Origin: Pythium myriotylum | Taxonomy: Eukaryota; Oomycota; Peronosporomycetes; Pythiales; Pythiaceae | Length of the DNA: 64,000 nt | Direction: 5' to 3' | Assembly (NCBI GenBank): GCA_023091665.1 | Contig: JALJCQ010000015.1 | Coordinates: 1,364,001 to 1,428,000 of the forward strand | Shown: one piece after another, positions 2,566 through 58,473 of the stretch | How the letters are laid out: every line of letters starts with the position of its first letter | Position numbering within the stretch: position 1 is the stretch's first letter | Program-made: the position numbers and the translations under genes | Notes under the pieces: model-generated | Databases searched by the model: none | Told to the model about the DNA's origin: nothing | What the model saw: only the letters and a program-made list of their open reading frames with translations

Positions 2566-5500
2566 TCACTCTTCGAGTCGAAAAGCCTCGACTTGGTCTG
2601 CTGCTTCTTCCACAGAATGCACTTTGGTCGAACGTGCGGACTTGGTTGACCTCGTCTCAGATTTGGACAGCTTTAACACCATGTCTCGAAATCGCATTCG
2701 GCCCGAAGTGCTACCAGCACTGTAAACACGGGACTCGCGTGGTAGAAGATCGGTGGGGCGGTGGTAAGTAACTCCGCTTTCAGTCAAAAGTTGGAGCATT
2801 GGGTCGAGAAGTCCGATCCCGTTAGTCCTCGAGTCACCATCCAACACATCCACGAGCAATGAGCTCCATTGTGTAGCTGCTTTTGATGACGGCAATAATC
2901 TGTTGGGGAATCCTGGTCGGCTGGGCGGTCTTGAACCGATCCAGTCATTTCGCCTCTTGGTAAGAACTTTCTTTACCGCTGCCTTCCATTTCGTGAGTTC
3001 GGTCGTCAAAAGCTTCTCATTTCCACTCAATGCGCGGACTTCGCTCACCACTTCGCTTGCCGCCAAGAACGCCGCCCATAGAAAGTCGTGCGATCGAAGG
3101 GATTCCATCAGCGAGTGACTTGTGAGTGAGAACAAGTCGCAAGCTTTTAAGGCTCTGACTGAGAATGGACTCACCGATACCGTCATCAAGCCCTTCTCGC
3201 CAAACCACTGTCCTTTACGGAAACGAACATGGTCTGCGGGCTGTAATATCCCTCTTGACGAAGTCATCACCAAATGTCCATGAATGACAAAGTACATCGA
3301 GTCGTTAATCACACCCTCTGATATCACCATTTCGCCGCGGGGATATCCTTCAAACCTGAGCTCTCGAGCAATGCAGCGCAAGATAGACTGCATGGTAGTG
3401 TTGTCGCCCCTCAACAGCGGGCCAAACAGCGCACCTGCGAAAGACTGCATAGGGTCCTCTGCGATATGCCGAACTACTTCGGTACGCATGTTGAGAGGGA
3501 GATCTGCAAACACAGTCTCATAGTTGACTCCTGAGTATGTCGACCACAATGTGGATAGATACGCATGTACCCGGTCCCGTAGGGCAGAGCTAACTCGGTA
3601 TCTGGAGAGAAACAGCTCAAGCGTGATGACATTCTTGCGGAAATCCACTTGATTCCTTATAAACGAGATATACAGATTCGCAATTTCACCGATCATGAAC
3701 GCCATCATAAGTACACCTCCGAAGCTCATAGCGATCGAAAATCCTAGATGGCCGACCGTTTCTGGATAGTATGTACGTGCTTTCTTTGCAAAAGCCGTCG
3801 CGGAGTATGCTAGTCCGCGAAGCAGCCGCAGTGTCGCTGTACGTGTATCCGGATTGCCACTGTCGTCATATACGAGTTCCTTGGCAGGTAGCCAAGCCGC
3901 CCACTCCATGCCAAACCCACCGAAGACTGCAAGTGCAAGGTATGCGCAAGCGCACCAGAAAATATAGATAGCACACAACAGCGAGATTGTACCGAACCGA
4001 GCAATCTCGTAAGACACACTGCGACGGTCAATCTCGTTTAAATAGGATTTGAGGTTCACGACTTTTACACACCGAAGGAGGCGAATCCATATCGTAGCCT
4101 CCATTGCAAAAATTGAGAGCACGTAGTCGATCGGCAAGGCAGAGATCAAGTCCCAGAGAAGTCGCTCCCTTTTGTACGTTTCCAGGATGCTTTGCTCGTA
4201 CAGTTCGACAGACAAAGCACTTTCCCGAAGAAGACAGTTGAACCAAATATCGGCGATAAAGGCTATGTCGCTAAAGATATCAAGGACGCGCACGATTATG
4301 CAAACCCCTGTCCACCGCTCCAGCGGATCGACGGAGATTCTATACGGCGCCAGAATTGCGTTGAATACGGTGCAGAATACGATCATGCGAAGCCACAAGA
4401 TATGGAGTTGGCTTTGCGCTTCAACACCACGCTTGAAATTCTCTCGAAAGGCACTTAATCCTCGCGAACGATTTCGATCAAAGGCGACCCGACTGCCTTT
4501 TACAGATATGCCATCGCCGTTGATACTGTCATCTTCATCACGTCTGCTTAGACTGGAACTTACTTCACGAAGAGTTTCCGTCGTCGACCCGTGAATCCGA
4601 TGTTGCTTTTGCTGGACTCTAACGGATTGTATTACTTGCTTCTTCCAGTCTGGGTACAAGTCGAATACGATACTCAGAGAGTGGCGTGAAAGAGAGTATA
4701 GGATACACGATGTTCTCGCTACGACGAACGCGTTTCTTGGTGCATCAGAGAACAAAGCATTCTCACCGAAGAAATCACCTGCTATGAGTTGACTTGCGTT
4801 GCGGAATGTCTTCGGGTCAATATCGTCAGATATCCCACTCGTCGAAACGTTGGACCACGCTGTTGGTCGGCGGGATCTTGACAACTGCATGTCAATTTTT
4901 TTTGCCGTCTGCTGACTCAGGACAGCAAGGACACCAGTGAACACAAAAAACATATCTGTGCCTTCTTCGCCGAATCGATACACGAACTCATCCTTGACCA
5001 CCAACACTTGGCTGAACTGGGCTACGAGCATCCGGGTGATTGCGGGTTCCATACCACTCATGAATGCAACCTTGTGAATCATCTTCTGGAGATTAAGTAA
5101 GCGGATATCTGTGACCAGAGATGGGGGAAGAGATGACTCAATTAGATGCTCTTGGGTGATAGTGTGGTAGCGACGGAAGAAGAAGTAGCCTTTCATCTTC
5201 GCGGACAAATTTACAGGAAGCGTGAAATGACCCAACAGGTGACGGACAGATCCGAGACGAGCATTGAATTCTCGACTATCAGCATCCATCATCTCTATCA
5301 CGTCTGAAAAGTTTCCGATCACGTAAGCAAACAGAAAAAATCCCGTCATCATCGTCATTACGCTGAAGACACATTGCGGGGTCGTCTTCGGAAGTTCGCC
5401 TTGATACGAAGCTGACATGAGCCCGAATGACCAGAAAATTGATGAGAAATATCTCAGCGATTTATCCCCACTTACAAGCTGTTTCCCCAGTAGCCAGTGG

Positions 5501-8500
5501 TTCCAACCGAATGCAATTTCACGCTCGCTCAATCTTGGATCTTTCAGATTGGCAGTCGATAGATGTGAGGCGAAGTCATGGTAGACGCACCCAGATAAAT
5601 GAACAGCAAGGAACGTATAGTAAACGAGCTTCATGATGCGCAACTCGGTGGTCCACTTGAGATACCTTTGTTCCAGCTGCCTAAATTGGCCAGGTACTTT
5701 TAGTAGCCGAACGAGCTTGTTAATGTTGAGAATCTCATATCGCACCGTCTTCAACATCCAATTAACGGCAAACAGAGGAGTTACTGCTACAATGTCAATT
5801 ACAAATGAACGAGAACGCAAATAGCGCTGCCGAATGCGCCTAACTTCCATCACCTTGTTTCCAAACTCGTAGTAACCCATCCGACATCTGACGTAGATAT
5901 CGATGAAAAACGAACACTCGAGAAAGACTGTTACGGAATCGACCAGAACGAAGTGCTCTGGGTCAACGCCAAAGCTTGCGTGGATGAGTATGGTGATCCA
6001 CTGAATTGTCATCGCACAAAACAACCAGGTTTCCCACGCCACGGATCCGACAGAGTCCGGCTCAAGAGGATAAAAAAGCGCAGCCTTCCATCTTGGGATC
6101 GATTCGTCCTTAAGATGAGCTGACACTGCGTCACTTGTAAACCGGGCGAGTTTATTGTCGTGTAACCGTCGCTCCAGTTGTAGCAGACTAGGGGTGATAT
6201 CGCTAAACACCTCGCGGAGTCTGAAAACATCTTGCCGTGACACTCGAATCAGAATGCATCCGCTTGCAGCTATAGCATCTTCTGCATATCGTGTAGCAAT
6301 TTCATCTCCTTCAAGCGCTCTTGTGCCAAAGAATCCTCCAACAGGAACCTTTTTCAAAACAGTGTGACCTTTCTTCAAATGCACACTCCCATGCAGCAAG
6401 AAGTGGAGGCGGTGAGCATTGTCCCCTGCGTGGTACACAAACTCTCCTTGTCCGTATAAGACGAATTGAGCACAATCCACGAATGCGGTTTCTAATTGCG
6501 AGAGAACTGGTCGGACACCACCCAGGAGGGCCAATGATTGAAGAGCTGGGTTGCAAATACTGCGCAAAACTTCTCGCCGATACGCAATAGGAAGCTCGCC
6601 GAGTAAATCCTGCAAATGCGCACCTCGATGGGCCGACCACCAGTAGTCGAGGTAAGAGTTAACACGATGGTGGATCCCCAACGGGGCGTTTTGTCGACGA
6701 AGAAAGAGTTGTATACGCGTTCGCACAGCAACAAATTCTTTTTGCTCGAAAGCGGATGCGGTGAACCGCTTTTGGACATTATCTACCACCATAGCAGTGA
6801 TAATGAATCCGCTGAACATGAAAACCACTGCAATCGCGTATTGGGCATCACTGCTTGGCTCAACGGTTTTGCCAAGTCCAGTTAGCACATTGGTCGCGTA
6901 GTAAAGTGCTCGAAAGTACTGCATAGAAGCAATTATCGCAAGCTCTGAAGATGCTGTCGGTATAAAACTGTTGTGTGCGTTTAGAAATCCTGAACCATTC
7001 TTGGTACGCACGAGTTGAACATCGTCGGTCGGGATCCAGGCGTCTTCATCTTCACTGAACCCTTCCATGAACGTCGTGCTAAAGTATAAGCAAGCGACCA
7101 CGTGGCACAACATCAGAAGTAGTAACCCAAATTGAAGAAGCTTTCGCCTGCTGTTCACGTGGTGTAGTTTCTCGATTTCTCTCAGGTGACCACGCAAATG
7201 CCAGAGACTGCACAAAACTCATTAAAGCCAAGCACCACGACAGGTTGGCTTTGATACGTACCGTAACAGACGAGGTAGTCGTAAACCGCGGATATCTGCA
7301 GCTGATCCGACGGCCCAGTAGGGAAACGCAAACAAAAAGTCGAAGATGAAGTGCTGTTTTAGATACCGCAGCGCACTTTTTTCGGGATCGATGATCTTTT
7401 CTGAATTGACCGTGAATGACAGGTTGAAGTTGATGTAGATGTCGACAACCAGGATCAAGTCCGTGAGAATGTTGAAAATGAATATATACCAAACACGCAA
7501 ATCGATAGCTGGGAAAGCGATCTCGAGCGGGACAAGAATGAAGTCGTAGACAAGAACACTCTTCCAACACATGAGTGTCAACCCATAGTCATACGTGAAA
7601 GGGACTTCTTGCCATCGAAACGTACCTGAAGAACGAGCAACCACCACAGTCGAAATCGAGAATCTGCATCCACGGCGTTCTCAAGGAGTAATCGTGCCAA
7701 TCCCACACGAGGAGCAGCCTTCGCGTGCTGACGCGTGTATTGGTCGTAAAAGAGCTTGACGCTGTCTGCATTCACCCGGGGCCGCACTGACACTGCACGA
7801 CGTAGGCGATTGACCATTGTCTCAGTAGGCGACTTGTCGGTGCTTTCAGCTTTGAGACCTTCGCGTTGATCGTTTCCAACAAAAGACGAATCAGGGACGA
7901 CCGAATTCTTTTTCGTGAAGCTTGAGATAGATTTCTTCACTTCTGCCCTCATTAGACGCAAAACCTGCGATGATAGCGCAGACCCACGTCTTTGTTTGGC
8001 ATGCTTCGAGGTTTGAGGTTTGGTTTCTTTCGTGGTTGTAAGCTGATCAGCATTCGCGATGAGCTCCGTGACAGATCGCCTTATCATAGGCACAAAGTGG
8101 GGGTATCCTTCAAGAACACGCTCGGTGTGGAATCGGGAAAGTTTGTAAAGAATGCTGTACGTCGTCGTCACGACTGTTGCGGAACGACTTCGATCTGAGA
8201 AGAGTGACATTTCTCCGACGAAGTCCCCCTTACGGAGCTCACGGACTTTGAAATGGTCGAGGATGACGTCTAGCACCCCCGAATGAATGATGTACATCGC
8301 GTCACCCTCATCACCCTCACGAAAAACGGTACAATGAGCGGGCATAAACATCACTTCGAGCGAGTTCGTCAGAGCTCGAACAAATTCAGGGCTGCATCCT
8401 GTAAAGACTGGTATTCGTGCCACAGTATCTTTGAGAAGCTCCACTTGCAGGTCTTTTGCAATCGAAGGGCACACCAACTTCATCGCTTCTCGATCATTTG

Positions 8501-9607
8501 ATTCTGCGTCTGTGCTGTACCGCTATTGTTGCGTCAATAGCCGAGATAGGTATTCTAATACCTCACATGCAAACTCACCTTCATGTAGTCAAGCGTTTGA
8601 GCCTGTAATCGTTCTGGAACCTGGTGGAAGGCCATAATGTGTTTAAGCTGATTTATTCTTGCTTCTGCTTCTTCGAGATGGCCGTTCTCACATTTCGAGA
8701 GCATGAAAAACATCACGCATAGGTAGGTGAACACACAAAAACCACACATTGTGATGGCAATGTTCAGTACAAATTCGGGGATCTCACGTGGTAGCTCACC
8801 CTCGTAGAACCCAGTGAGCATACCGAACCCCCAAAAGAGCGACTGGAGGTAGGTGGTTCGTACGGATAAGTGTTCGCCTCCATACTCCGGTCGCTTTGCG
8901 AGCCAGTGGTTATCGTGGTGGTCATCATACCCGAACCAGAACCGAATGCACGCGATGCCGTGCGATAGAAACATTGTACCTCCTATGGTCTTGAAGATCC
9001 TCAGCGCCTCGAAGTACCTCGCGTACACATCGTCTAGATTCGAGAGATACTCGGGCAACCGCTTGAGTCGAAGCAATTTGTGGAACTCGAGATACATATT
9101 GCTGGCCTTATTGGGGTGGTACATGAGTGAGAACGGAAGAATCGCCGCCACGTCGATGGCAAAGTTGGCCGATTTGACGTACTTGAGCATGGCGCGTCGC
9201 GTGTCACGGTGCACGCTGCCGTCCTCGTAGAAGCCTGTGTTAAGCTTGACACCAAAGTCTCCGCAGAAGAGGATTTCGCACACGTAAAAAGCGAGGATCT
9301 CTGGGGACTCGGAGACAGTCGCGTGGGGTTCGAACGTCACGACGAACGGGAGCAGGAAGAGCTCATAGACGATCGCTGCCAGCAAGACCTGGCGCCATAC
9401 TTTGAGGAACGTGGAGTGTGGGTCGAGCGCGCCCTTGACGTCCAGCGCGAGAGTTTCCTTGAGCGCCTGCTGGTGGAGAGCGACCGAGTTGATGACGCTC
9501 GCGCGCGAGACGTCGAGCGACGAGCGCAGCCGCACGAGCGTCGAGGGCGGCGGCACGGGCTCGCTCGGGGCCACGGCGCGCAGCGTCGGCGGTCGCGCGA
9601 GGGTCAT
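2566..9607 (-). CDS. Four-domain cyclic-nucleotide-binding ion channel (minus-strand copy)
   Basis: Four exons: 8579-9607, 7626-8522, 7262-7560, 2566-7207; introns 56, 65 and 54 nt; 2288 aa. It contains four successive units, each with S1-S6, a pore loop and a C-linker/CNBD. Pore loops centre on residues 270 (FYEGELP), about 853 (GLGKTVEP), 1344 (SYQGELP) and 1884 (KKARTYYP). None has the GYG of K+ channels. CNBD signatures: unit I VGEMS...RSAT and unit III FGENA...RNAF keep the Glu and Arg that contact cyclic nucleotide; units II (FGTRA) and IV (FGEKG...SVSPFSV) lack the Arg. The C-terminus (last about 150 residues) is a basic/Ser-rich cytoplasmic tail. Known relatives: CNG/HCN/EAG family; the single-chain four-repeat layout recalls the sea-urchin sperm CNGK channel. 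Predicted plasma or flagellar membrane cation channel. Head-to-head with its paralogue at 9840. The domain calls are secure; ion selectivity is not. Confidence 0.88.
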
Positions 9608-9839
9608 GGGCCTGTCGGGCGTCTCTCATCTTGCCGAAACTGCCCCCGAGCCCAATTTTAGCCACGGGAGACAGAGGGCCAATGGCCGATGAGCTTGCCT
9701 CGACAGCGGAAATGGACACCATCGATGCTCGCTTAGTCGCTCCTCGTAACGGATGCGCTCGGCGCGCTGGAAATAGCCTCGTCGCCGCGTCGCGCTCTTC
9801 TCACATCCGCCGCCGCCCGTCGAGCCCCGTGCGCCGCCC
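9608..9839. promoter_or_regulatory. Shared bidirectional promoter of the channel pair
   Basis: Only 232 bp separate the two ATGs of divergent paralogous channel genes (9607 on -, 9840 on +). Both promoters and 5' leaders must therefore lie here or overlap the other gene's leader. I see no TATA-like element that I would defend. Confidence 0.6.
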
Positions 9840-12800
9840 ATGGGCCAGCGCGATGCGCCGTCTCGCGAGAGTGCCGTGACCGATCGGTCCAAGCGGGCGT
9901 CCCGCGGGCGGATCAACTTCGAAGGCTTCCGCTTCTCGACGACCACCGGCGCCGCGCTGCTCGCAGACGAAGCCGAGAACGCCATCGACCCGAACTCGCT
10001 GCTGCTGCGGCTCTGGTACCACGCGCTGCTCGTGTGCATCCTGCTCGAGGCCTTTGTCCTCCCCTTTTTCGTCGCGTTCAAGCCGAACGCCCCTCACACG
10101 CAGCCCAAAGAGCTCTACGTCGTCATGGGCTGCGAGCTGTTCTTCCTCGTGGACCTCGTCGTCCAAGCCCACACGGGCTACTACGACGACGGCAACATCG
10201 TTCGAGACCGCCGAAAGACGCGCGTGCGCTATCTCAAGTCCAAGTGGATCCTGCTTGACGTGTTCACGCTCGTTCCGTTCTCTTACCTCTTGACAGTTCC
10301 AAGGATGTCAAAGGCTGCAACGGAGATGCACAAATTACTCCGATGGGTCCGGTTGCCAAAGTACATCGCCGTATTGGATGACATGTACGCAAAACAGTTT
10401 GCCGCGGTCAAGATCTTCAAATTGGTGGTCTCCACAATCTATCTCTCGCATTTTGTGGCGTGTATCAGATTCTCGTTCGGCTACAATGAACATCATGACG
10501 ATCACTGGCTTCCGGTCATACCGCACGAGCCACCGCACGTTCTTCGCCAGTATCTGACTGCACTCTTCTGGTCATTCGGACTCCTGTCAGGCCTGTTCGA
10601 GGGCGAGCTACCGACGCGCATTCCTGAGTTTGCCTTCGCGGTTTTCGTCGCGAGCTGTGGCTTCACATTATTCACAACGCTCTGTGCTATGTTCTTCATG
10701 ATATCGAAGTGCGAAAGCGGGGACACCGAAGCAGCAGAGGCCAGAATACATCAGCTCAAGCATTTACTATCGTTCCATCACGTCCCAGTTGATCTACAAA
10801 AGCAAGCTATCGAGTACCTTCAGGTGAGATTGATATGCTTCAGTGATTGGTGGATTAGTCTCTTTAGTTCAATTCGGGTTACGTGCACAGCGATATTACA
10901 CAGACGAGGAATCCAACGATCGGGAGGTGATGAAGCTGGTTTGTCCATCGATCAAACAGGATATTCAAGTCGAGCTGTTGAAGGATACAGTTGCGCGAAT
11001 CCCACTCTTCGAAGGCTGTAGAGAAGATTTTATCGTGGCTGTGACAAGTTTGCTACAATTGATTTCACTTCCCGCTCAAACAACAGTGTTCGAAGCTGGC
11101 GAAGTAGGTGACTCCATGTACATCGTCCAGTCTGGTGTTTTGCATGTCATCATTAGTGGCGTGACAGTTCGCGAAATGCGCAAAGGAACATGCTTTGGTG
11201 AACTCTCCGTATTTCTCGATAGCCCAAGAACCGCTACTATTGTAACGGCTACGTACTCGACCCTGTATAAATTGTCGCGTTTTCATGGAGAAAGGGTGCT
11301 CCAAGGATATCCCGAGTGTGCTGCAACGATATCGGCGAGAATTTCGCTGATGGGCAAAAAGAATAATGGACAGAAACAGTCGATTATTTCATTGAGGAGC
11401 TCTTCTTCGCACTCGCGGTTCGACTTCAAACGAATGGATGCGTCTGCCATCACTGCGAAAATTCGACAACAGGCAAACTCAGTTCCACTATTTGGGTGGT
11501 TCAAGAAGAATAGCTACGTGTTGCCCGGTGTCGCTGACACAGAAGAATCACCAGTAACAACTTCTCCTGATGCCCGCATCGCTGCACTCGATGAGAAAGA
11601 TATGCTGAAGAGCTACTACGACCAGAAACACGCTGAGATGCCCCGAGAAACCGTATCCAATCTTCCATGGCTCGCCAAGCACATTCTTTTCCATAGGTGC
11701 ATCGATGCCCAATCGTCGCGACGAATGTGGTGGTTGTTCCTCATCGACATTGTTCTGACGTATAACTGGGTCATGATTCCACTTCGATTAAGCTTTCCTG
11801 TGTTCAATCGACCAATGTGGTATGTTGATTTTACCAATGTTGTCGCCGATTTGGTGTTACTCGTCGATATCTACCTCAACTTTAACCTTTCGTACACCGA
11901 GAACGCCGAGAAGATCATGGACACTTCCCGTAGTGCCGCTCGTTATTTAAAAGGAGGTTTCATGTTCGACATATTCTGCCTGATGCCGTTCTGGATCCTT
12001 TCAGCTCAAAGTAAAAACTTTAAGGTTCGAATTCTCCGACTTGTGCGGTGCGTGCCTCCATCACCGCTCACTATTCATGGGGATGTCACATTCTATTGCC
12101 TATGTCTAGGTGTCGGGCATGGTTTGATCACTACCAGGAAATCAGTAGCTTTTATCGGCTCACCAATCGCGGTCGACTTGTCATTCTTGGTATATTCTTC
12201 TTCATGCTATATCATATCATCGCTTGCATGCACTTTGGTGTTACGAGTATCGAAGGGTTTAGCTCCGACGATGAGGCTTGGATCCCCAGCGAGGATATCT
12301 ATCTTGTTCAAATCAACAATACGCACTACCTCGGCTATAATCACACGATTTATTCCGTCGATGACCCTGAGCTGAACGTGATTGCCGCGAGACAATATTT
12401 TCGATCACTTTATTATGCCGCAAACGTTCTCGCTGCACTTGGCAAGACCATTGAACCAGAAAGTGATGTTCAGTATGCGATCGCCCTCATATTTATGCTC
12501 GGAGGCTTCTTGATTACTGCCGTCGTCGTTGACATTGTTCAAAAACGCTTCACGGCATCGGCATATGAGCAAAAACAGTTTTATTCTATGAGGACACGGA
12601 TCCAGCTTTTTCTTCGACGTCAGAACGCACCAGACTCAATTTTCCAGCGAGTGAATTCATTCTTAGACTTTTGGTGGTCTTCTCACCGAGGAGCATTCAT
12701 TAGCGAACTTATTGCTGACTTACCTGCAGCAATGAAGCTCCAGATCCTCCACAGCATATGCAATCCTGCCCTCCAAACAATCGGTTTGCTTCCAAATGCT

Positions 12801-15800
12801 CGACCATTCCTAGACAAACTCGAAGATTTTTTTGTCACCAACGTGAAGTTCATTTTGTATGGGCAGGGGGAGGTTGTATATCGACAAGGAGACTACGCGA
12901 ACGGATTGTTTTTCTTGCTGGAAGGTGATGTATGCGTGATTGCAAATGCTGATAATCCTCGAAGTATTCCGCTTGGAGGCTTCTTTGGGTCTGCGGTTTT
13001 ACGAGCCACTGAAACATCGCTTGGCTACGGGGAGCATGTAAGCGCTGCGAAAGGATGCATTCTTTTGTTCATTTCGAGAGATCATCTTCATGGGATGGAT
13101 GAGATATATCCTGGGTTCTCAAGCGAGCTGGCTGCTCTTGAATCCAAGCTCCTCCGAAACAAGCTAATGATCTCGGATCTCCGGGGTTCAACGGGTCGAG
13201 TAAGTGGTAGAATGAGTGGGCGTCGAGGTACTGCTGCTCCTGTTCCAGCTCGACAACGCACAATCTGGTCACGTGTCTTTGGGCCAGCGGAGGTTGCTCT
13301 CGATCCAGACTCAAAGATGATGATGCTTTGGGAAATCTGGCTATTCGTTGCAATGACCATCCAGTGGTTGACAGTGACCATCCAGATTTGCTTTCGAATG
13401 AAGAAGGCGAGGTACATCCAAGCTGATGTTGCGGCAGCCGTCTTGGAAATATCATTTTTTGTCGACATTTACCTTCGCACACGACTTGGATATTACGCAT
13501 TCGGCAACAAAATCATGGACCCGCAAGTGATTCGCCATTCGTACATTCAGTCGCGAACCTTTTTTGTCGACGCTATATCGTTAACACCGTTGTATGCCGT
13601 GAATTGGTTTCGCACCCCGGAACAACGTCTGGATGTCTTGAACGTGAATAAGGTCCTTCGTGTCCTCAAAGTTCCAGCTCAGCTCCGGGCACTAGAGAAT
13701 CGATACTTGAAACGAACAACTGAACTCCGTCTCTTCAAACTCTTCTACTACACTTTTCTGCTAGCACACATGTTTGGATGTATGTGGTTTGATTTCGCGT
13801 CAAACTCCTCCCACATTTTCAACACCTCAATGAATGCAAATACGGAGTTTGGTGACGACTCGTGGCTTCCCCCTGCGTCTCTTGAGTCTGTGGCGCTTAA
13901 TAAGCAGTATTTCGCGTCGTTGTTCTGGTCATTTGGCCTTATGTCAGCTTCAAGTACGGGGGAGCTACCGAAGACTGCCCAGGAGTGTGTATTTGCTGTC
14001 ATCACAATGACATGCGGATTCTTTCTGTTTGCATATGTTGTCGGCAACTTCACTGATATCATTGAGCTTGCCGATGGCGGTAGCCGTGACTTCGTGGAGC
14101 GACTATCTGCAGTGCGCCTGGTCAAGTCTCATTTCGCCTTGCCACGATCAATCTCAGACCAAATCATGACTTACTTCTGTTTTCAACGGTACCACACAAT
14201 CACTCAAGAACGACACCTTGAGCGTTGCCTTCCTCCTTCACTGCTTACTGATATTCGACTCGTTCATCTGAAGCCAATGATTGGAAAGGTTTCATTCTTG
14301 AGTGGAATGGAAGGTTCGGTCACACGAATGCTCGTCTCCCAGTTCCACCAGATGCTAGTTCTACGTGAGGAGTATGTGTGCAAGTATGGTGAGGAAGGAT
14401 TCGACATGTACTTCGTATTCACCGGTGTGCTTGATGTCTTACTTCCCACAGATATGATCACTTCGGAGGAAGTCAGTGATCGCATTACTGGAGGAGGGGG
14501 CCAAGAGGAGACTGAGCCAATCTCTCAGACTGGCGCTTTCGCGAATGAAGATCCATTCGCTGGCCGTTTGAAGAAGGTGAATGAACTCAACTCAGGCAGC
14601 TACTTTGGGGAGAATGGGCTCTTTACCAAAAGTCTACGCAATGCTTATGTTCGGGCATCAACTTCGTGTATCCTGTACAAACTCTCCCGAGACTCACTTG
14701 AACTTGTGTTCGAACGGTATCCACAATGGAAAGAGAAGGTTCTCCGAATAGCAAACTTGCAGCGCGAACAGCAGCGACTCGCGCGAATGTCCGCCGAAGA
14801 ACAAAATCGGCATTCAGATGAGTCAAATGGATCCATGCTCTCTCGAATCGATTTGATCAATCGACGCGCGGAGCGAATGGAGGAGGAAATGCAGATTGTG
14901 CGTCTTCGTCGGATGGACAGCACACAAAGCATCCGGCCACGAGCATCAAAAGCGAGACGAAAGATTGAACAAATCCTTAAAGATCCAGTAATTGTACTCT
15001 GGAGAAGTTTGACTGTCGGAGCTAGTGCGCAGAGTCGAGTACACCGACTTTGGCTTTGGCTGATGATATTCTCCTCGATCTTTATCGCAGCGATCATTCC
15101 GTACCGAATTGCGATCGATCCGCTCTCGCAAATATCGGCATTTGGGGAAGTCATGAAGGCGATCGAAGTCTTTTGCGAAGTGATGTTCGTGCTGGATATT
15201 CGTTTTAGCTGGCGAGTGCAAGAGAGTAAGAGCTCGATGGAGTTATACGAGCAAACATACAGAGTGATGTACACGAAAGAGCGTCTAAAATGGGACATTA
15301 TCGCGAGCTTTCCGCTCGATAGACTCCTGGTCGACTTCACGAGTACACCGTGGCTCCGATTGCTTCGCTGTGCCAAGATCATCAATGTCCCCAAGTACAT
15401 GGAAGAGCTGAATCGACGCAGCGTGTCCACTCAGTTTAATCGTTTTCGCGGATTCGTCTTAATGTACCTCCTTGCAATCTATTGGGCAGGTTGCGCCTAC
15501 CTTGCAATATCAGAAGTGGCCGGTTTTGGAGATGAGTGGAACTCGTGGCGGCCATCCAAGGTACTGGCATTCACTCGAGACGAAATGCCGTCGACAGAGA
15601 CTGTGACTCTTCGATACTTTCGAGGGTTCTTTTTCGGAGTCACCTCCTTCGTCAAGAAAGGAAAGACTTTCACCCCTGACTCGACGCCCCTGAACATTTT
15701 TGCCGTGCTCACTTGCTTTACTGGGATGTTGGTGATGTCGTTTATGATAAGTGAGTTTGCCTCATTGTACATTTCATACATCTGGAACGAAGTCGACTTC

Positions 15801-17015
15801 CGGAAGACACACATTGCAGTGGAGTTGTACCTCGACCGAGTTCGCGTTAGCGACGAGCTCAAGCGTCGGACTCAACGCCTGATGTCATCTCTGTGGTCTT
15901 CGCACTCGGGTGTCAATTACGAGGCAGTATTTCGAGAGCTTCCGCCTTCTATCAAGCGAGCTGCGATTATTTACGTCGTCAAAAAACCACTTCATCTCTT
16001 CACAGGGACCACATTTCGAATGCTCGCATGCGATTCCCGCATAGACCTCGACGAGTTTGCGCAAAAAATTGCTCAGTATCTCAGGTTCGAAGGTTATCCG
16101 CGAGACGAAAATGTCGTCGCCGAAGGAAGCATATCTCGTGCGATGTTTTTCGTAGTACGAGGACACTTGATGATGCAGAGCAAAACGAACGCAGCGGTTG
16201 CACGAACAATCGTTCGACGAGGTCAGTATTTTGGCGATCGCGGGTTGCTCGGCTGTGCCGTCAGTATGATCACAGTCCGTACGATCCGAGCATGCGATTT
16301 GCTATCAATCAGCTCTGAGGACTTTCTCAGTGTTCTGGAAGGAAACTGCTTCTCACACGTAGCGCTCACACTCGTCGCACGTGCTCAATCTGCCCTTGAG
16401 ACCCGTGCTGGCCCCGAGTGTTCACGCCAGGAGATGGAAATTCGTTGGGGCGATGCACTGTTATCCGAGCTTCGAGACTTGAAGAAAAGCAATGATAGAA
16501 GCGCATTCTATAGTGCAAACAATGGTCCGCGATTGTCGAGCGAGCACATTGACAGATTGGCGCACGTCCTCGACACTGCAGCCGACTGCGTGCACGCTTT
16601 CCTCCCATTCCTCTACTTGGTGTTGCCTTTTGACCCATTCGACTGGAACTCGGCAACGAAGAATGCGCAATCGAAGCGACGGATGTCATCACCCGTTCCG
16701 AACGACAAATCGCCAGGACAGGGCACCCACGCGGAGACATCACTGAGTGAGACGGTCCCTTCTGCATTTGAAGCACAGCAAACAGCGGTACAAAGCCCCG
16801 AAGCTCCGTTTGAATCGCCGCGAGATGCCTGCAGAGAGGTCTCGGCCGGACTCGGCTTCTCCGACGTCAACGCTGGTGCGGCACGAGCGACTCGTTCGGA
16901 TGAGATCTCACTTGACAAGCAGGTGGTCGAGACTGTCGACTGGCTCGCCACCACTGAGGACGTCTCATCGCCCAGGCCCGACTCTGCCGCCAAGCCCCTC
17001 GACGCCAGCACCTGA
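9840..17015 (+). CDS. Four-domain cyclic-nucleotide-binding ion channel (plus-strand copy)
   Basis: Three exons: 9840-10823, 10891-12047, 12110-17015; 2348 aa. Introns of 67 and 62 nt sit at the same places and phases as two of the three introns of the minus-strand paralogue. Four S1-S6/CNBD units: pore loops near residue 255 (LFEGELP, Gly codon 10602), 824 (ALGKTIEP, Gly 12441), 1330 (SSTGELP, Gly 13959) and 1897 (VKKGKTFTP, Gly 15660). The residue after the filter Gly is E, K, E, K. CNBD cassettes: unit I CFGELS...PRTAT and unit III YFGENG...LRNAY look competent; unit II (FFGSAV) and unit IV (YFGDRG...VSMITVR) lack the Arg. S4 segments carry few charges (for example KLLRWVRLPKY in unit I), so voltage sensing may be weak. 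The long tail after about residue 2100 is low-complexity, Ser/Pro-rich. Likely cation channel of plasma or flagellar membrane; ligand (cAMP/cGMP) inferred from family. Confidence 0.88.
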
Positions 17016-25510: not shown

Positions 25511-26539
25511 TCACTTGCGCAGCGACTCGATCTCGATGCCGCCGAGACGCCCCGACGCGTAGCCGCCCGCGCGGTTCTGCGCGTTCGCGAGAGCGAACTC
25601 GTCGGCGGCCGCGAGCCCGGCCTCCTGCTCGACCCGGTCGTCTTCCGCCAGTTCTTCGCGCAGCCACTGCTCAACGACGCGGTACATCGGGATCGCCGAC
25701 CCATCGGCGCGCGTGGAGCACTCGCGGATAGAACCATTAAAACCGATCGTCCCACGCTTCACGTACACCACGTGGGAAGCCCAGACATCCGTGCCGTCGA
25801 AGATGTGAGTCGCCAGCAACACGGTCGCGCCGCGGCTCTCGGTCTCCTCTTTCAAAAACGCCAACACGTTCTCTCTCGAGATGATGTCGAGCATACCGAG
25901 CACTTCGTCCAAAATAATGAGCTGGGAGGGGCGAATTAGCGCGAGGAAGAGTTGCACGCGGCGGCGCTGGCCATCCGAGAGCCGGTGAAGTCGCCATTTC
26001 GGGTCGATGCGAAGCACGCGCAGCAAATGGTCGCGTCTCTCCGGGTACTCGGCCTGCAGCTTGACCATCATCTCCTCAATGGCAATGTCAGCCGAGTAGG
26101 CCATTGCGTGAGACGCAAACGCGACCGCCCGATGGCCCCAGTCGGCACTCACATACGTGCGCAGCATATTGAGCGTGGTATCGCGGAAACTGTCACGACC
26201 AAACACCAGTGCTGTATCATCGCGAGTGAGATGCTTGCCGGCGATCACGCCGAGCAACGTGCTCTTGCCGGCGCCATTGCCCCCGACGATGAGCACTCGC
26301 TGGCCCGGCTGGATGGTGAGGTTGACTCCTTTGAGCACGCGGTCGTCAACCTCCGCTGCGTCTCCGTTATGGGCTTCGTGCTGCAATTGGTTGAGAAGAT
26401 AGCCACCGACGGAGACCTTAGCGAATGCGAAGTCGAGTCCCGTGAGCTGCACAGGAGGTCCGAGCAGCGCAACGCCGTTCACGACAGCAGGAGGCTGCGC
26501 GGACACGGCGCTTGGAGACGATGGCGATGCGTTGGCCAT
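25511..26539 (-). CDS. CAF16: CAF16-like soluble ABC ATPase
   Basis: Single exon, 342 aa, one ABC nucleotide-binding domain and no membrane segment. Walker A GGNGAGKS at residues 86-93, signature LSDGQ at 187-191, Walker B LIILDE at 207-212, His-loop ATH about 30 residues later. The LSDGQ signature and the sequence LDEVLGMLDIISRENVLAFL are typical of the ABCI/CAF16 group (yeast Caf16, plant ABCI19-21), which in yeast associates with the CCR4-NOT complex; I infer the same class here. The first 20 residues are Ser/Pro/Val and probably disordered. Divergent from the polycystin-like gene with 286 bp between ATGs. Confidence 0.85.
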   Translation of the reverse strand: MANASPSSPSAVSAQPPAVVNGVALLGPPVQLTGLDFAFAKVSVGGYLLNQLQHEAHNGDAAEVDDRVLKGVNLTIQPGQRVLIVGGNGAGKSTLLGVIAGKHLTRDDTALVFGRDSFRDTTLNMLRTYVSADWGHRAVAFASHAMAYSADIAIEEMMVKLQAEYPERRDHLLRVLRIDPKWRLHRLSDGQRRRVQLFLALIRPSQLIILDEVLGMLDIISRENVLAFLKEETESRGATVLLATHIFDGTDVWASHVVYVKRGTIGFNGSIRECSTRADGSAIPMYRVVEQWLREELAEDDRVEQEAGLAAADEFALANAQNRAGGYASGRLGGIEIESLRK

Positions 26540-26825
26540 TGCGGAGACGATGGATTGTGCGAATGGAAGCGAGTGCAGTTGTGATCCGCGTGCAGATCAC
26601 AGGCGAAGACGATTCGCCAACAGATGCAGATGCGATTCGACCCTTGCGTTCTTTGCATCGAGTCCACCTGACTATCGAGCCAACAATGATTGCAATTCAA
26701 ATATGAATTGTAGCTCCCCACACAGTGAACCCATATCAAATTCAAAGGGGTTGAAGCTGTTTCACGCCGCGGCGGTCGTTTCAGTATTCGTGGGGTGTTG
26801 CGAACCAGTTCGAGGCGCACAGGGC
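26540..26825. promoter_or_regulatory. Bidirectional promoter, CAF16-like / polycystin-like
   Basis: 286 bp between divergent ATGs. The frame of the plus-strand gene is open upstream across this whole region and into the ATPase gene, but that extension is Cys/Ser-rich and unlike any channel N-terminus, so it is treated as non-coding. Confidence 0.45.
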
Positions 26826-28928
26826 ATGGGAGCAGAGTCAAAGCTACAGCACGAGCCGCATTTGACGCCGGTGGCCATGGCGCCACCAAGTGCCAAAGTC
26901 TCGAATGGTCCGACAGTGGCCTCCGCTGCGCGGGCGATCGCGTACGACGACGCATTGTTGATACTTCGCCACGATCGTCAGATGAAGCGCGCGTTGCTGG
27001 GCATCCCGTTCCCTATCATATTCTTCTGCATCTTTGTGGCGATGCTCTCCCGCCACATCCCGACGAGTCAGTTGTACGAGCAGGCATACTCGGTTTCGTC
27101 CGTCCTGGACAGCTCGGGGACGGACGCCATCACGGCGGACACGACGATGAAGCTCGAGAATGTTCAAACAATCGGCGACGTCTTCGACTGGCTCATTGAC
27201 ACATTCATTCCCAGTGTGTTTATCACGGAAGACTACAACGGTAACATGCTGACAAAGGACAAGTGGGGACGCATTGCCAACTTCAACAAGGTGCTCGGTG
27301 CCGTGCTCTTCCAGGTCACGCGAGCGCCGATCCACAAGTGCCAAGCCGCTCAGTTCCTGATCGATCTGTACCCTAACTGTTATGATGCTGCTAATGCTAT
27401 CGCAAGTACTTCTCTCATCAGCTTCGACAAGAACGTCACTGAAGCCACAAACCTGATCTCGGAACTGAAGACGAAAGGAGATTGGCTTGACTTCTCCACC
27501 CAGCAGCTCTTGATCACAGTAGTCGCGTACAATGGCGAAATTCAAGGGTACACGGTGTCGAAGCTGCAGCTAGATTTCCACCAAGGTGGATACATTGAAG
27601 TCTCCACGACCACAACACCTACCATCTCGGACCCTTACAAGCACCACGCGGCTATCGTTCTGGACGCACTTGTTGGTGTATGTCTTGCAATCGCACTCCT
27701 TAGACCTCTTGCCCGATTTCTCACAATTCTCAAGTCACCTCGAGCGTGGCGGACGGCTATTCATGAGACCGACTTTGTTAGCATTCTGGGTGGGTTAGCA
27801 TCCAGTGCGTGTACAATTACGTTCTACGCTATCTGGTTCTCAATGGTCCAACTGATGTACGCCAAGGACTTTCGTGACAATCTCGCGCGATTGGTCGTGT
27901 CTGGTAAGGACTTTGATCCAAACTCAAAAGAACGCGATGGTTTAATTGCTGTCACCCACTCACTCGAGAAGGTCGCCAATATGACTACCGCGCTGCGCCT
28001 TGTAGCCATGGCCACGGTGTTCGCGCTGGGTGTTGACATCTTAATGCAGTTCCGCTATCATCCTCGACTCAACATTCTCACGCGCACGATCGCGAACGCT
28101 CTGCATCAGTTTGCTGGCTTCTTCATTGTATTTGTAGTTGTCTTTCTCACGTTCGCCGTCTCTGGTACGGTGCTCTTCGGCGACCGAGTCGAGGCTTTCT
28201 CTACGCTCCCACATACTATGGAATCGTGTGTGAACATGCTTTTTGGGAACTTTGACTACTCGACGATTCAGGACTTGCAAGCGCCAGTGGGCATGTTATA
28301 CTATTGGTTGTACATGATCGTCGTGTGTCTCGTGCTGCTCAACATGATGCTGGCGATCGTGTTGGACTCGTACGCGGAGATGACCCAGGAGTCTGCGCAT
28401 AGTAGATACAACGCTTCGCTTCGTCGTACCCTTCGGAATATTATGTACGATCGCCAGGCCCGGGCTACGCAGCTTCAGAAAGGCCATCGTATGTGTTTCA
28501 AGAAACACAATGACAGCGATAAGGATGAGGCGAGTGACAGTCGACTGAGCGTTGTCTATCGTGGACGCATTGTACCAAACGTATTAGAAAAGGCGCTGAT
28601 TACAAACCAGTTGAGACTCAAGAGCTCAAGTGTTACCAAAGACAGCCTCTTGCAATTGACCGAGTCGATGCTTGTCGACTTGTTTCCCCAAGTAAAGCTT
28701 TCACCCAGCGAGACGCGCGCGACAATTGAATTCCTTCTCTGTGGCTGCCACACGTCGGTGAGTGGAGATATCTCTGTCGCAACCATGATGGCAGAAAATA
28801 CGGCGGACAATTATCTCGACCACTCCAGCTTGAATACGCAAGATCGAGCTGAGCTAACGAATGCACTTAATCGCATGGAAGTGCTCGAGCGCAAGCTCGA
28901 TCTCCTTTTGTTGCAGGCAACGCCGTGA
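26826..28928 (+). CDS. Polycystin-2-like (TRPP) cation channel
   Basis: Single exon, 700 aa from the ATG of MGAESKLQHEP. First membrane span near residues 58-80 (LLGIPFPIIFFCIFVAML), then a large extracellular loop of about 200 residues with Cys residues and an NVT glycosylation site, which is the polycystin/mucolipin 'TOP' domain layout. Five more spans follow (IVLDALVGVCLAIALLRPL; ILGGLASSACTITFYAIWF; TTALRLVAMATVFALGVDI; FAGFFIVFVVVFLTFAVSG; WLYMIVVCLVLLNMMLAIV). The pore helix and filter read CVNMLFGNFDY, close to the LGDFD filter of PKD2 with Asp replaced by Asn. The C-terminus ends in a short coiled coil (NRMEVLERKLDLLLLQ), as in PKD2. Predicted Ca2+/cation channel of flagellum, plasma or endomembrane. 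Its stop lies 25 bp from the end of the convergent neighbour. Confidence 0.85.
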   Translation: MGAESKLQHEPHLTPVAMAPPSAKVSNGPTVASAARAIAYDDALLILRHDRQMKRALLGIPFPIIFFCIFVAMLSRHIPTSQLYEQAYSVSSVLDSSGTDAITADTTMKLENVQTIGDVFDWLIDTFIPSVFITEDYNGNMLTKDKWGRIANFNKVLGAVLFQVTRAPIHKCQAAQFLIDLYPNCYDAANAIASTSLISFDKNVTEATNLISELKTKGDWLDFSTQQLLITVVAYNGEIQGYTVSKLQLDFHQGGYIEVSTTTTPTISDPYKHHAAIVLDALVGVCLAIALLRPLARFLTILKSPRAWRTAIHETDFVSILGGLASSACTITFYAIWFSMVQLMYAKDFRDNLARLVVSGKDFDPNSKERDGLIAVTHSLEKVANMTTALRLVAMATVFALGVDILMQFRYHPRLNILTRTIANALHQFAGFFIVFVVVFLTFAVSGTVLFGDRVEAFSTLPHTMESCVNMLFGNFDYSTIQDLQAPVGMLYYWLYMIVVCLVLLNMMLAIVLDSYAEMTQESAHSRYNASLRRTLRNIMYDRQARATQLQKGHRMCFKKHNDSDKDEASDSRLSVVYRGRIVPNVLEKALITNQLRLKSSSVTKDSLLQLTESMLVDLFPQVKLSPSETRATIEFLLCGCHTSVSGDISVATMMAENTADNYLDHSSLNTQDRAELTNALNRMEVLERKLDLLLLQATP

Positions 28929-39148: not shown

Positions 39149-40543
39149 TTACAGCCGCTCCAGTCGCGCTCGCCATGACTCGAGCGCAGACTGTCCCGAC
39201 TCCTCCGCTTCCAGGTATTCGTTTAGCGCGTCGCGGAACTCGGCGATACTCACCCAGCCATTGGGTGTGTATTTGCCGCTAGTGGCTGCGTCCTTCCACA
39301 TAAGCGCAAAGTGATCCTCCGGTAACTGGTAGCCGATCTGCTGGAACAGCGCGCGAACGAATTGGCGGTCGCGTGGCTGAGAGAACTCATCATCGCGGAT
39401 TCCGCTCGTCGCAAACTCCTCCGGATATAGCAGCTCTTTGCTGCTCGAGTCGTCTCCGTAGTTCTGCGCATCCGCGATCGATCTACGTGCCGGTAGAGGA
39501 ATGTCGCTTCGCACGCTTGGAACTCCGAAGCTGCGCGTCTCGGCACTCGTGTTTTTCCAGCCGTAGTTTACCGCACGCCCCAAGTCACGATCCGGTTGCT
39601 GCTCCTCTTCGCTGTAACGTCCCTGGATGCACTCACGGGCCGACTCGTGCTCTTTAGTCGGTTTAAAGCCAAAGACATGGTCGGGAGGCAACTGCGTCGC
39701 ACAGGCCCCGAGATGGCGAGGCCGGCCGAGGTGGTCGAACATGCTGCGCATGTCCTCGACTTGCTTCGCGGTAACCACGGGTCTCGTAACTGACTCGTCC
39801 ATCTCAGGATTCAAGCAATTGGCTGCCCCAACGCCGTCGGATCCCGGTGCAATGCTTTTATTGCCGAAGCGATACTTGGTTGGGTCGATCTTGGTGGCAT
39901 CCCATGCGTACTGACGATTCTTCTGTTCGCCTGGCGCTAGAGACCCATGAGAGCGCTTGTACAAGTCTTCGTCCTGTTTGTTGTTGAGCACCGTCGACGG
40001 ATAGAGTAGTTCTTTGGCCGACTCCCCAAATGTGCCACTGATCCCGAACACAAATTCCGGCCTCTGCATCTGCGGCGGAAGCACATGGCCTCGCGAGTAC
40101 GACTTGCCGAGCGGCTCGCGTTTATGGCTCGCGTAGTTGGACTCGAGACGCTGCTGGTTGAAGCGCTGGAAGTCGGTCATCGCCGCGGAGTTTGTGATCA
40201 CGTCTCCAACATGTTGCGAGCTTGTCGTGGTCACGCCGAACTTGGTGAGCGGGTCGACATTCTTGAGATCGTTGATGAGCCCCGGGTGTGCGATGCGCGA
40301 GCCCGGCTCGGCGAAGTACGACTTGCGGAAACGACGCACTTCCTCGGGCGTCGCTGGCCGCGTCTCGAATGTCAGACACGCGGCTGCGTTCTCGGCGTCG
40401 CGGCCGTCGACGACCTTCCCTGCGATCTGCAATCTCACTGCGTGAGCCATTGCAAGGATTCCGCGTGACAACGCGTGACTCACCCGCGGCGGCGTGCTTG
40501 ATCGGCTCATAGCTGCGTCAGTCTGTCTGCAAAACGCAGGCAT
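39149..40543 (-). CDS. EFHB: EFHB / CFAP21 axonemal protein
   Basis: Single exon, 464 aa. Matches the EF-hand domain-containing family member B pattern: repeated short blocks with TFETRPATPEEVRRFRKSYFAEPG, LTKFGVTTTSSQHVGDVI, KEPLGKSYSRGHVLP, FVFGISGTFGESAKELLYP and KYRFGNKSIAPGSDGVG, then a C-terminal EF-hand-like region (RALFQQIGYQLPEDHFALMWKD ... GWVSIAEFRDALNEYL) whose loop looks incomplete. EFHB (CFAP21) is a microtubule inner protein of ciliary doublets, so the organism builds a motile flagellum. An in-frame Met lies 11 residues in. Divergent from PIBF1/CEP90 with 139 bp between ATGs, consistent with shared control of flagellar genes. Confidence 0.8.
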   Translation of the reverse strand: MPAFCRQTDAAMSRSSTPPRVSHALSRGILAMAHAVRLQIAGKVVDGRDAENAAACLTFETRPATPEEVRRFRKSYFAEPGSRIAHPGLINDLKNVDPLTKFGVTTTSSQHVGDVITNSAAMTDFQRFNQQRLESNYASHKREPLGKSYSRGHVLPPQMQRPEFVFGISGTFGESAKELLYPSTVLNNKQDEDLYKRSHGSLAPGEQKNRQYAWDATKIDPTKYRFGNKSIAPGSDGVGAANCLNPEMDESVTRPVVTAKQVEDMRSMFDHLGRPRHLGACATQLPPDHVFGFKPTKEHESARECIQGRYSEEEQQPDRDLGRAVNYGWKNTSAETRSFGVPSVRSDIPLPARRSIADAQNYGDDSSSKELLYPEEFATSGIRDDEFSQPRDRQFVRALFQQIGYQLPEDHFALMWKDAATSGKYTPNGWVSIAEFRDALNEYLEAEESGQSALESWRARLERL

Positions 40544-56478: not shown

Positions 56479-58473
56479 TCATAGAATTGGTTCTGGGTTC
56501 ACTATGCGATCCAGTGACCACATCGAGCAAGAGACATCTTCCACGTCATCAGCTTCAACTTCCTCGCCTCGATCGTCATCAACTTCAACTTCAACTTCCC
56601 CAACACGGTCGACGTGTTCTCCATTTCCAAGATTCCCGTGACCTTCAACGTTGACCGTGGCTGCTCGTGTAGTATAGGTGTCTTGTTGAGTTGATATTGG
56701 TGTTGCTGATGCATTCGAGGTGGCCTTCACTAACTCGCGCTGTCGACTGCGCCTGTCACACGTTCTGATGTTGTGACCCCTCTCTCCGCATTTCGAACAA
56801 ATCACAGGGGACTCGGCCCTCGGTATCTCGCCGCGCGATCGGATCCGCACTATCTTTGGTCGGCCAGCCGTTCTATACGAGACTGGTGGAAGTGTGACTC
56901 CGTCTTTTTTGCACTCGCTGACGTCAATGGGTACAATGTACGGTTGAAGAGCTTGAGATACAGTCCTGTGCCTGTACAAATGTGAGACGTGCTTCAGGAA
57001 CTGAAAACGCCGTTGGAGACAGACAGCCATTGCATGGACACATGGGTACCGAAGTTCTTGCCACACCTTGCAGCTGCATTCCTGCTTTTCAAGGTCGACG
57101 ACCCGAAATATACCGATCTTACGTTGCACCTCGAAGAGATTGCCGTTTCCCGGAACGACTAATCGTCCCCTTGCAGATGGTTGGATCTTCTTGAGCTCCG
57201 TCTCTAGCCAAGGGACAACTTCAAGCTCTTCAGCAACAGCGAATCAATCGCGTAGCTTTCCCATCCTCTCCATAGTTCTACGCGTCACATGAACGAACAC
57301 TGCAAAGTGGGCAAGCTGACTGTCCTTTCCGATCCAGTTGTTCATAGACTCGGCGGCGTTCGATGTGACGATGCCGAATCTTGGAACCGGAAACTGCGCA
57401 GTAACCCACTTCGACATGTCCGTGTCAACCAAATACGCACGCACACCGGAATGTAGCCCGTCGATCACAGAGAGGCAATCTTCGACCTCCTCTGCAACGG
57501 CTGCTTTGGCGAGAGCGTGGATCTCTTTGCTCATTTTGACGTGGAACTTGCTCTGAACGTTCCGCTTGATGTGGACAGAGCAGTAGGAGTGATGGGCATC
57601 AGGGAGTTGGACCTGAACCGCTGGAATGAGTCCTTTTTCTCGGTCGCTGACGACCACAAGCTGAGCAACAGACTTGAGATGGGGCATGCCCTCGATTGCA
57701 GCTTCAAGGAACCAGCTCCAATCCAGGCCGTTCTCTTCACGGTTTGAAATTCCGAAGCCCGCAATAAGAATGTCAAAGTTTCCAGTGACGACCGAAGCCA
57801 CATACAACGTTCCTTTAGCTTTCGTCTTCAGATGACACGCGTCGAGAGCAAGTACAGGAAGCGTATATTGGATGACCGTGTCGAAGGCTCCGTGTACAAC
57901 ACAGGCGCGGCTGAAGTGGTTCTGTTCGTCACGTTCGAACCTGGTCGCCGTACCGGCGTTGCACGCCCTTAGACGATCCAACCAGTCACTGATGAGCATA
58001 TAGCTGTCCTTTCCGTGTAGCGTCGCGGCTTCAAGGACCGCTCTTCGGGCTCTCCACACCATGTGACCTGAGACATCGAGGCTGTGCTCCTTGAGTAAAT
58101 GTCGCTTCAGCTCAGATGTAGATGCTCTGTTCTCGGTCAGCTCCATGTGTTTCTTTACAATCGGAAAGATGACACTGAGAGACACAGTTGATGTATTGCG
58201 TTTTCTGTGACGATTTTTCTCGACAAAAACCATAGAGTGTTTGTCGATCAGCTTGGTGATGTACACCTCACTCTCGTCCTTTTTCTTGTTCGCGAGGAGG
58301 AGGAACGGGCAGTCAACGTGTTCAGAGCAGAGAACCTTCAGTCGCCGCTTGGAATCCGTTGGCTTCACGTTCCCACACCCAATTGAAGCGAAGTGTCTGT
58401 TAACTGCCAAGCGGAGAAGAGACATGGAGTCGAATGCCTTTCCCTCAGCTAGTTCTTCGCTGGAGACTTCCAT
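56479..58473 (-). pseudogene. MULE transposase, broken by one in-frame stop
   Basis: A frame of 664 codons is continuous except for TGA at 57244-57246 (codon 410). Before it: an N-terminal FLYWCH/WRKY-like zinc region (LRLAVNRHFASIGCGN, CSEHVDCPFLL), then the MULE transposase core VLALDACHLKTKAKGTLYVA, ENGLDWSWFLEAA, LVVVSDREKGL, AESMNNWIG, giving Asp, Asp and a late Glu for catalysis. After the stop the same frame continues to a SWIM zinc finger (CSCKVWQELRYPCVH) and a CCHC knuckle (CSKCGERGHNIRTC), ending in an acidic tail. The two halves together are a typical MULE transposase length. One nonsense change seems to be the only lesion; readthrough cannot be excluded. Confidence 0.88.

What the first reader, a model, noticed from the sequence alone, without database searches (positions are those of the whole stretch)
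2566..17015. Four-domain CNBD channels whose filter ring alternates E-K-E-K or E-K-E-R
Directly seen: the residue after the filter Gly in units I-IV is E, K, E, K in the plus copy (codons at 10605, 12444, 13962, 15663) and E, K, E, R in the minus copy (8795, 6868, 5395, 3775); in the last unit of the minus copy the Gly itself is Ala. No unit has GYG. Known: vertebrate CNG channels have a Glu at this place in each subunit; sea-urchin CNGK is four-repeat but K+-type; Nav uses DEKA, Cav EEEE. An alternating acid/base ring in a CNG-type single-chain channel is not one I know. It might conduct Na+ selectively, an anion, or act as a non-conducting sensor.
Basis: partly seen in the sequence, partly recalled or inferred. 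Interest (0 to 1): 0.9.

Follow-up and report, generated by a model that had tools for sequence, protein, structure and literature searches.

The report
Oomycete channels with charge-balanced ion filters
Water moulds carry a large family of single-chain ion channels with four cyclic-nucleotide-binding repeats, not found described in our literature searches, whose ion filter mixes acidic residues from two repeats with basic residues from the other two, so what these channels let through, if anything, cannot be read from a known channel.

Summary
In detail: all eight codons are as stated and both genes splice into intact four-repeat 6TM-CNBD proteins. The pattern is a family trait. Of rows with all four sites aligned, 73 of 86 outside Saprolegniales are acid-base-acid-base; 0 of 21 in Saprolegniales are. 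AlphaFold models put the residues in the loop between pore helix and S6; unit I is closest to CNGA1/CNGA3 entries.

Refinements: (1) The glutamates of I/III lie two residues further along the loop than the Lys/Arg of II/IV, yet behave as partners: II+10 and III+12 reversed charge together twice, the only one of 19,526 similarly variable column pairs to do so. (2) At the innermost CNG filter position (+7) there is exactly one Lys/Arg in 82 of 82 rows outside Saprolegniales (unit IV) and in 17 of 22 within (unit I). (3) Units I/III and II/IV are sister pairs. (4) CNBDs I/III keep ligand residues; II/IV do not.

Best reading: a cyclic-nucleotide-gated monovalent-cation channel with Ca2+ binding abolished by the filter bases. 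A non-conducting sensor is the main rival; an anion pore is unlikely. No physiology was tested.

The parts
9840..17015 (+). Plus gene, four-repeat CNBD channel, 2,348 aa; exons 9840-10823, 10891-12047, 12110-17015 (stop included)
   Evidence: splice model (introns 10824-10890, 12048-12109, GT..AG); Pfam hits; 60% identical P. oligandrum relative
2566..9607 (-). Minus gene, four-repeat CNBD channel, 2,288 aa; exons 9607-8579, 8522-7626, 7560-7262, 7207-2566 (stop included)
   Evidence: splice model (introns 8578-8523, 7625-7561, 7261-7208); Pfam hits
9608..9839 (.). 232-bp intergenic stretch shared by the divergent pair (shared promoter region is inferred)
   Evidence: plus-clade and minus-clade relatives share contigs in other assemblies
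9984..11319 (+). Plus unit I (6TM + C-linker + CNBD with canonical phosphate cassette)
11701..13118 (+). Plus unit II (CNBD degenerate)
13299..14729 (+). Plus unit III (CNBD canonical)
15027..16352 (+). Plus unit IV (CNBD lacks the phosphate Arg)
10584..10613 (+). Plus unit I filter +5..+14, LSGLFEGELP; E+10 and E+12
   Evidence: filter loop in model
12429..12458 (+). Plus unit II filter LAALGKTIEP; K+10, E+13
   Evidence: filter loop in model
13941..13970 (+). Plus unit III filter MSASSTGELP; E+12
   Evidence: filter loop in model
15648..15677 (+). Plus unit IV filter FVKKGKTFTP; K+7, K+8, K+10
   Evidence: filter loop in model
8789..8818 (-). Minus unit I filter LTGFYEGELP
6856..6885 (-). 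Minus unit II filter LTGLGKTVEP
5389..5418 (-). Minus unit III filter MSASYQGELP
3763..3792 (-). Minus unit IV filter FAKKARTYYP (Ala in place of Gly at +9)

Best explanation
Each gene encodes a whole pseudo-tetrameric pore in one chain. Shown by sequence and models: four CNG-type repeats arranged as two sister pairs (I/III acidic filter and intact CNBD; II/IV basic filter and degenerate CNBD); the charges sit in the selectivity-filter loop; the filter is near charge-neutral and more conserved than the mean of each unit. Inferred: cyclic nucleotide binding to CNBDs I and III opens a CNG-like S6 gate. The filter passes monovalent cations (Na+, perhaps K+) but neither binds nor admits Ca2+, because Lys/Arg replace two of the four CNG glutamates and a Lys sits where CNGA1 T362 forms the inner Ca2+ site. 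A II-III salt bridge holds the outer ring. It would work in analogy to the single filter Lys of Nav (DEKA) and NALCN, reached independently. Likely setting: sporangia and zoospores.
Against: No electrophysiology exists here. Three clustered bases in unit IV (+7, +8, +10) are more positive charge than in any characterised cation filter I know of (recalled). In unit II the filter (0.70) is less conserved than its own pore helix (0.74) and S6 (0.78). In Saprolegniales most of the charges vary. The models lack the fourth pore loop in one assembly and no coordinates could be measured, so side-chain direction is unknown. Unit II has mostly Thr at gate position +34, and unit I mostly Cys at +38. A prior study cited in PMC5322657 found no change of cAMP or cGMP levels during zoosporogenesis. 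S4 segments shown carry few regular charges, so voltage gating looks weak.
Confidence: 0.48

Rival explanations
1. Non-conducting cyclic-nucleotide sensor: the filter Lys residues act as tethered cations and the salt bridge seals the pore; the protein signals by conformational change.
For: Three Lys/Arg in unit IV plus one in II in the narrowest part of the pore; no conducting filter of this superfamily that I know looks like this (recalled); intact CNBDs I and III.
Against: The filter is more conserved than the mean of each unit, and S6 gate and hinge positions are kept; charge tends to be compensated when it changes; a sealed pore would not obviously need balance.
Confidence: 0.28
2. Anion-permeable pore: basic residues of II and IV select anions, the acids only fix the bases by salt bridges.
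For: Net filter charge in rows outside Saprolegniales is 0 in 48 of 82 and +1 or +2 in 5 of 82, not strongly negative; Lys at the inner site.
Against: Net charge is not positive overall (mean -0.29); conserved acids D+39 and E+40 on inner S6; no pore of the voltage-gated superfamily is known to me to be anion-selective (recalled).
Confidence: 0.1
3. The charged residues do not face the pore: they are structural salt bridges behind the filter and the backbone carbonyls alone set selectivity, giving an ordinary non-selective CNG-like channel.
For: E and K are two residues out of register; the II+10/III+12 swap is what a buried bridge would show too; models give no side-chain direction.
Against: In CNGA3 the +10 Glu side chain projects into the lumen (PMC10761061); +7 carries exactly one Lys/Arg whose domain differs between the groups, hard to explain by separate buried bridges.
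Confidence: 0.12

Closest known systems
Animal CNG channels (CNGA/CNGB, TAX-4)
   Different: One chain holds four unlike units; TIGE absent in every unit of the two window proteins; bases in two units; Lys at the T362 position; two CNBDs degenerate.
CNGK (sea urchin, zebrafish, choanoflagellate)
   Same: Four 6TM-CNBD repeats in one chain; repeats 1/3 and 2/4 more alike (PMC7576140 passages); in ApCNGK only the third CNBD works (PMC4749565 passages).
   Different: CNGK has GYG/GFG K+ filters; here no GYG in the window proteins.
[quoted passage not shown]
   Same: Oomycete, tandem CNBD; the own genome has two such genes (L012, L013).
   Different: Two repeats and TVGYG-type filters; in the tree their repeats lie apart from units I-IV.
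Four-domain Nav / NALCN / oomycete FVCC with Lys in the filter
   Same: Single-chain pseudo-tetramer with a filter Lys whose domain differs between lineages (DKEA v DEKA, EKEE v EEKE; PMC6259924 passages; oomycete DDKD and AGKE, PMC5824947 passages).
   Different: Those are not CNBD channels and have one base among acids or small residues; here up to four bases balanced by acids in a CNG-type loop.

Membership tests
Animal CNG channel | 6TM + C-linker + CNBD with CNG-type pore-loop length | tested here: met
Animal CNG channel | TIGE (CNGA) or TIGG (CNGB) filter | tested here: not met
   filters; none of the four units of either window protein has it
Animal CNG channel | Opening by cAMP/cGMP | not testable with these tools
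   Cassette residues: unit I Glu 109/110, Arg 105/110; III Glu 142/143, Arg 141/142; II Glu 0/130, Arg 1/131; IV Glu 116/136 (17 Asp), Arg 3/135 (P0144 left out)
CNGK | Four 6TM-CNBD repeats in one chain | tested here: met
CNGK | GYG/GFG K+ filter in the repeats | tested here: not met
CNGK | Grouping with metazoan/choanoflagellate CNGK in a tree | not tested
   no CNGK sequence was fetched
Oomycete two-repeat tandem CNBD channel | Two repeats with TVGYG-like filters | tested here: not met
   four repeats, no GYG; L012/L013 repeats lie apart in the tree
Nav/Cav/NALCN (FVCC) | Four 6TM domains without CNBD | tested here: not met
   PF00027 in all four units (three stretches in the last exon and one in an earlier exon of each gene); absence of CNBDs in FVCC is recalled
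Nav/NALCN-like working principle | One Lys in an otherwise acidic or small filter ring | tested here: inconclusive
   +7 ring of G-A-A-K type: exactly one Lys/Arg in 82 of 82 and 17 of 22 rows, but neighbours at +7 are small, not acidic, and +8/+10 add bases

The most novel reading that the evidence does not exclude
A new selectivity principle in the voltage-gated superfamily: a zwitterionic filter in which reciprocal Glu-Lys/Arg bridges between neighbouring repeats, plus one inner Lys that sits in different domains in different oomycete groups, either form a salt-bridge latch that opens with cyclic nucleotide or make the pore anion-permeable.
Probability: 0.2. Interest if true: 0.95.

Novelty: new variant of a known kind. 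Interest (0 to 1): 0.76.

Why it matters
The 2020 survey of CNBD channels found filters TVGY/FG-like, with metazoan CNG the only clade-level exception in its data set (PMC7576140 passages). This family breaks that rule. It offers natural mutants (charge swaps, a Lys in different domains, neutralised sites) to test how a filter of mixed charge selects ions. It may also give oomycetes a channel that their hosts lack; hosts were not searched here.

Tried and rejected
Considered and rejected: (a) pseudogenes or a mis-spliced artefact: both genes are open over about 2,300 codons, share two intron positions and have many relatives. (b) A gapped alignment error creating E/K: the stretch from +0 to +30 is exactly 31 residues in 113, 132, 141 and 130 rows for units I-IV; 2, 7, 5 and 11 further rows had another length and were left out of the column counts. 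(c) Descent from the GYG two-repeat channels of the same genome: their repeats lie together, apart from units I-IV (long branches noted, root at midpoint). (d) A generic relatedness artefact behind the II/III covariation: tested against 19,526 pairs of columns of units II-IV with 10-18 charge changes. Shared changes were 6, five of them compensating, or 5, four of them compensating, depending on how parsimony ties are broken; the two full swaps stand in both. By compensating changes alone four pairs score higher, and eight pairs share six or more changes. (e) Lys relocation as chance: of 106 offsets scanned, 15 have a base conserved in some unit; one besides +7 (offset -7, start of the pore helix) has it in different units in the two groups. 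So relocation is rare but not unique.

Rows dropped or not counted: 'Saprolegniales' means the 23 rows named Achlya, Thraustotheca, Saprolegnia or Aphanomyces (Aphanomyces and Thraustotheca checked; Achlya and Saprolegnia recalled). The other group includes many rows without an organism name, assigned by their place outside that set. P0144 (another family) was left out of the pattern counts. One search listed 120 of 123 hits. The 33 later proteins P0145-P0177 were read but not added to the 86/21 counts; P0160, P0164, P0165, P0168, P0169, P0170 and P0172 depart from the pattern at a site they hold. The own-genome copies L009-L011 were not in the counts either. P0141 was left out of the outgroup and of the Saprolegniales columns.

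Led nowhere: promoter scan of the intergenic region (bacterial consensus only).

Full report
What is there. The window is from an oomycete genome (58.7 Mb, 55 contigs), Pythium-like by nearest named relatives of the plus last exon (Pythium oligandrum 60%, P. insidiosum 58%). Two genes lie head to head with 232 bp between start codons. Spliced, they give intact proteins of 2,348 aa (plus) and 2,288 aa (minus). The first and last introns of the minus gene sit at the positions of the plus gene's two introns (read). Each protein has four 6TM-CNBD units.

Register. I counted from the aromatic residue in the pore helix (+0). The stretch to the S6 Gly at +30 is 31 residues without gaps in 113, 132, 141 and 130 rows for units I-IV, with Pro at +14 in all but one of these. 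The same spacing occurs in TAX-4 (alignment). CNGA1 T362, I363, G364 and E365 (PMC12375067, passages) are then +7 to +10. The basic residues of II and IV fall on the CNG Glu place (+10). The glutamates of I and III after Gly are at +12. Unit I also has an acid at +10 in all 113 rows (108 E, 5 D). Unit IV has Lys at +7 in 112 of 130 rows and at +8 in 107 of 130. Unit II has Glu at +13 in 126 of 132 rows.

Family. Three searches gave 182 proteins; every listed row that names an organism names an oomycete (Phytophthora, Nothophytophthora, Pythium, Globisporangium, Lagenidium, Achlya, Thraustotheca, Saprolegnia, Aphanomyces). P0144 and P0178-P0182 are weak matches from other families. Of rows with all four sites, 73 of 86 outside Saprolegniales (the two window genes included) are acid-base-acid-base, and 0 of 21 in Saprolegniales are, where two are acid-base-acid-neutral. 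After dereplication at 80% identity, 53 rows remain; 25 of the 35 complete ones keep it. The own genome has at least five members: the window pair, L009 (E-L-E-R), L010 (E-K-E-R) and L011 (D-Q-A-K). It also has two-repeat channels with GYG/GFG filters (L012, L013), so the architectures coexist.

Origin. A tree of 87 units separates {I, III} from {II, IV} with 100/99 support (the tool warned of long branches). With units of other CNBD channels from the same genome and from P0144 added, I+III (100/99) and II+IV (99/98) remain groups (midpoint root, four long outgroup rows). So the four-repeat protein probably arose by duplication of a two-repeat one, and the alternation follows from that: odd units acidic with intact CNBDs, even units basic with degenerate CNBDs (cassette counts).

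Do the charges interact? In a FastTree of 145 rows built without the pore columns, II K to E coincides with III E to K on two separate branches (P0028+P0030; P0086 against its sister P0088), and P0024 has neither charge while its sister P0017 has both. By parsimony, II+10 and III+12 change together on 6 of 287 branches (15 and 13 changes; hypergeometric p 9.6e-6, 36 pairs of sites examined). With another tie rule it is 5. Against 19,526 pairs of comparably variable columns this is the only pair with two full opposite swaps. I read this as contact between neighbouring loops II and III, in spite of the two-residue offset.

The inner Lys. At +7, where CNGA1 T362 forms the inner ion site, all 82 complete rows outside Saprolegniales have exactly one Lys/Arg, the Lys of unit IV; two of them also have a His in III. 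In Saprolegniales 17 of 22 have exactly one Lys/Arg, in unit I (19 of 22 if His is counted). The base thus sits at opposite ends of the chain in the two groups, reminiscent of DKEA and DEKA in Nav1 and of EKEE and EEKE in NALCN (PMC6259924, passages). Net charge of the filter segment is 0 in 48 of 82 and -1 in 27 of 82 rows outside Saprolegniales, mean -1.95 in 21 Saprolegniales rows.

Function. The filter is more conserved than the mean of its unit in all four units, though in unit II it is below the pore helix and S6; S6 keeps CNG-like gate positions in I, III and IV and has conserved inner acids in II and IV. I therefore favour a cation pore that lacks Ca2+ binding, gated by CNBDs I and III; this is inference. 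Expression context: in P. infestans cyclic-nucleotide-related genes, CNG channels among them, are nearly all expressed mostly in sporangia and zoospores (PMC5322657, section 11); which of them belong to this family was not checked.

Pair. The pair looks old; orientation elsewhere was not seen.

Literature. Searches of an open-licence library gave listings in which I saw no description of four-repeat CNBD channels in oomycetes or of this filter; most subscription papers are not held. PMC7576140 (abstract, passages, section 5) reports two-repeat oomycete forms with TVGYG. PMC4820453 (passages) counts up to 25 CNGA1 homologues in P. infestans. PMC5824947, PMC6259924, PMC4749565, PMC12223298, PMC12375067 and PMC10761061 were read as passages only; of PMC5322657 passages and section 11.

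Noticed in passing
L014 (G000:C18:884500-894400), P0144, P0178: A second oomycete protein family with at least two, in P0144 and L014 three or more, CNBD-channel repeats and partly K+-type filters (GVGYGD in L014; TVGFGD, DCFGD, VCYGD in P0144); a possible oomycete counterpart of CNGK.
   Followed up: partly
L012 and L013 (G000:C13): Two two-repeat CNBD channels with GYGD/GFGD filters in the same genome, matching the published tandem type.
   Followed up: partly
window 26442-28925 (+): Polycystin-type channel (PKD_channel, Ion_trans) about 9 kb from the pair.
   Followed up: no
window 39152-40543 (-): EFHB C-terminal EF-hand plus CFAP77 match: a likely flagellar protein gene in the same window.
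   Followed up: no
window 47692-53583 (-): 1,964-aa single open frame with ABC_tran, ABC2_membrane_3 and R1_ABCA1 hits: an ABCA-type transporter.
   Followed up: no
window 57247-58473 (-): MULE/Mutator transposase open frame.
   Followed up: no
offset -7 from the pore-helix aromatic, units III/IV: A second base conserved in different units in the two groups: unit IV outside Saprolegniales, unit III within.
   Followed up: no
G000:C29:267118-510398: A cluster of 20 matches to PF00211 (guanylate cyclase domain), all over the family cut-off, on one contig of the own genome.
   Followed up: no
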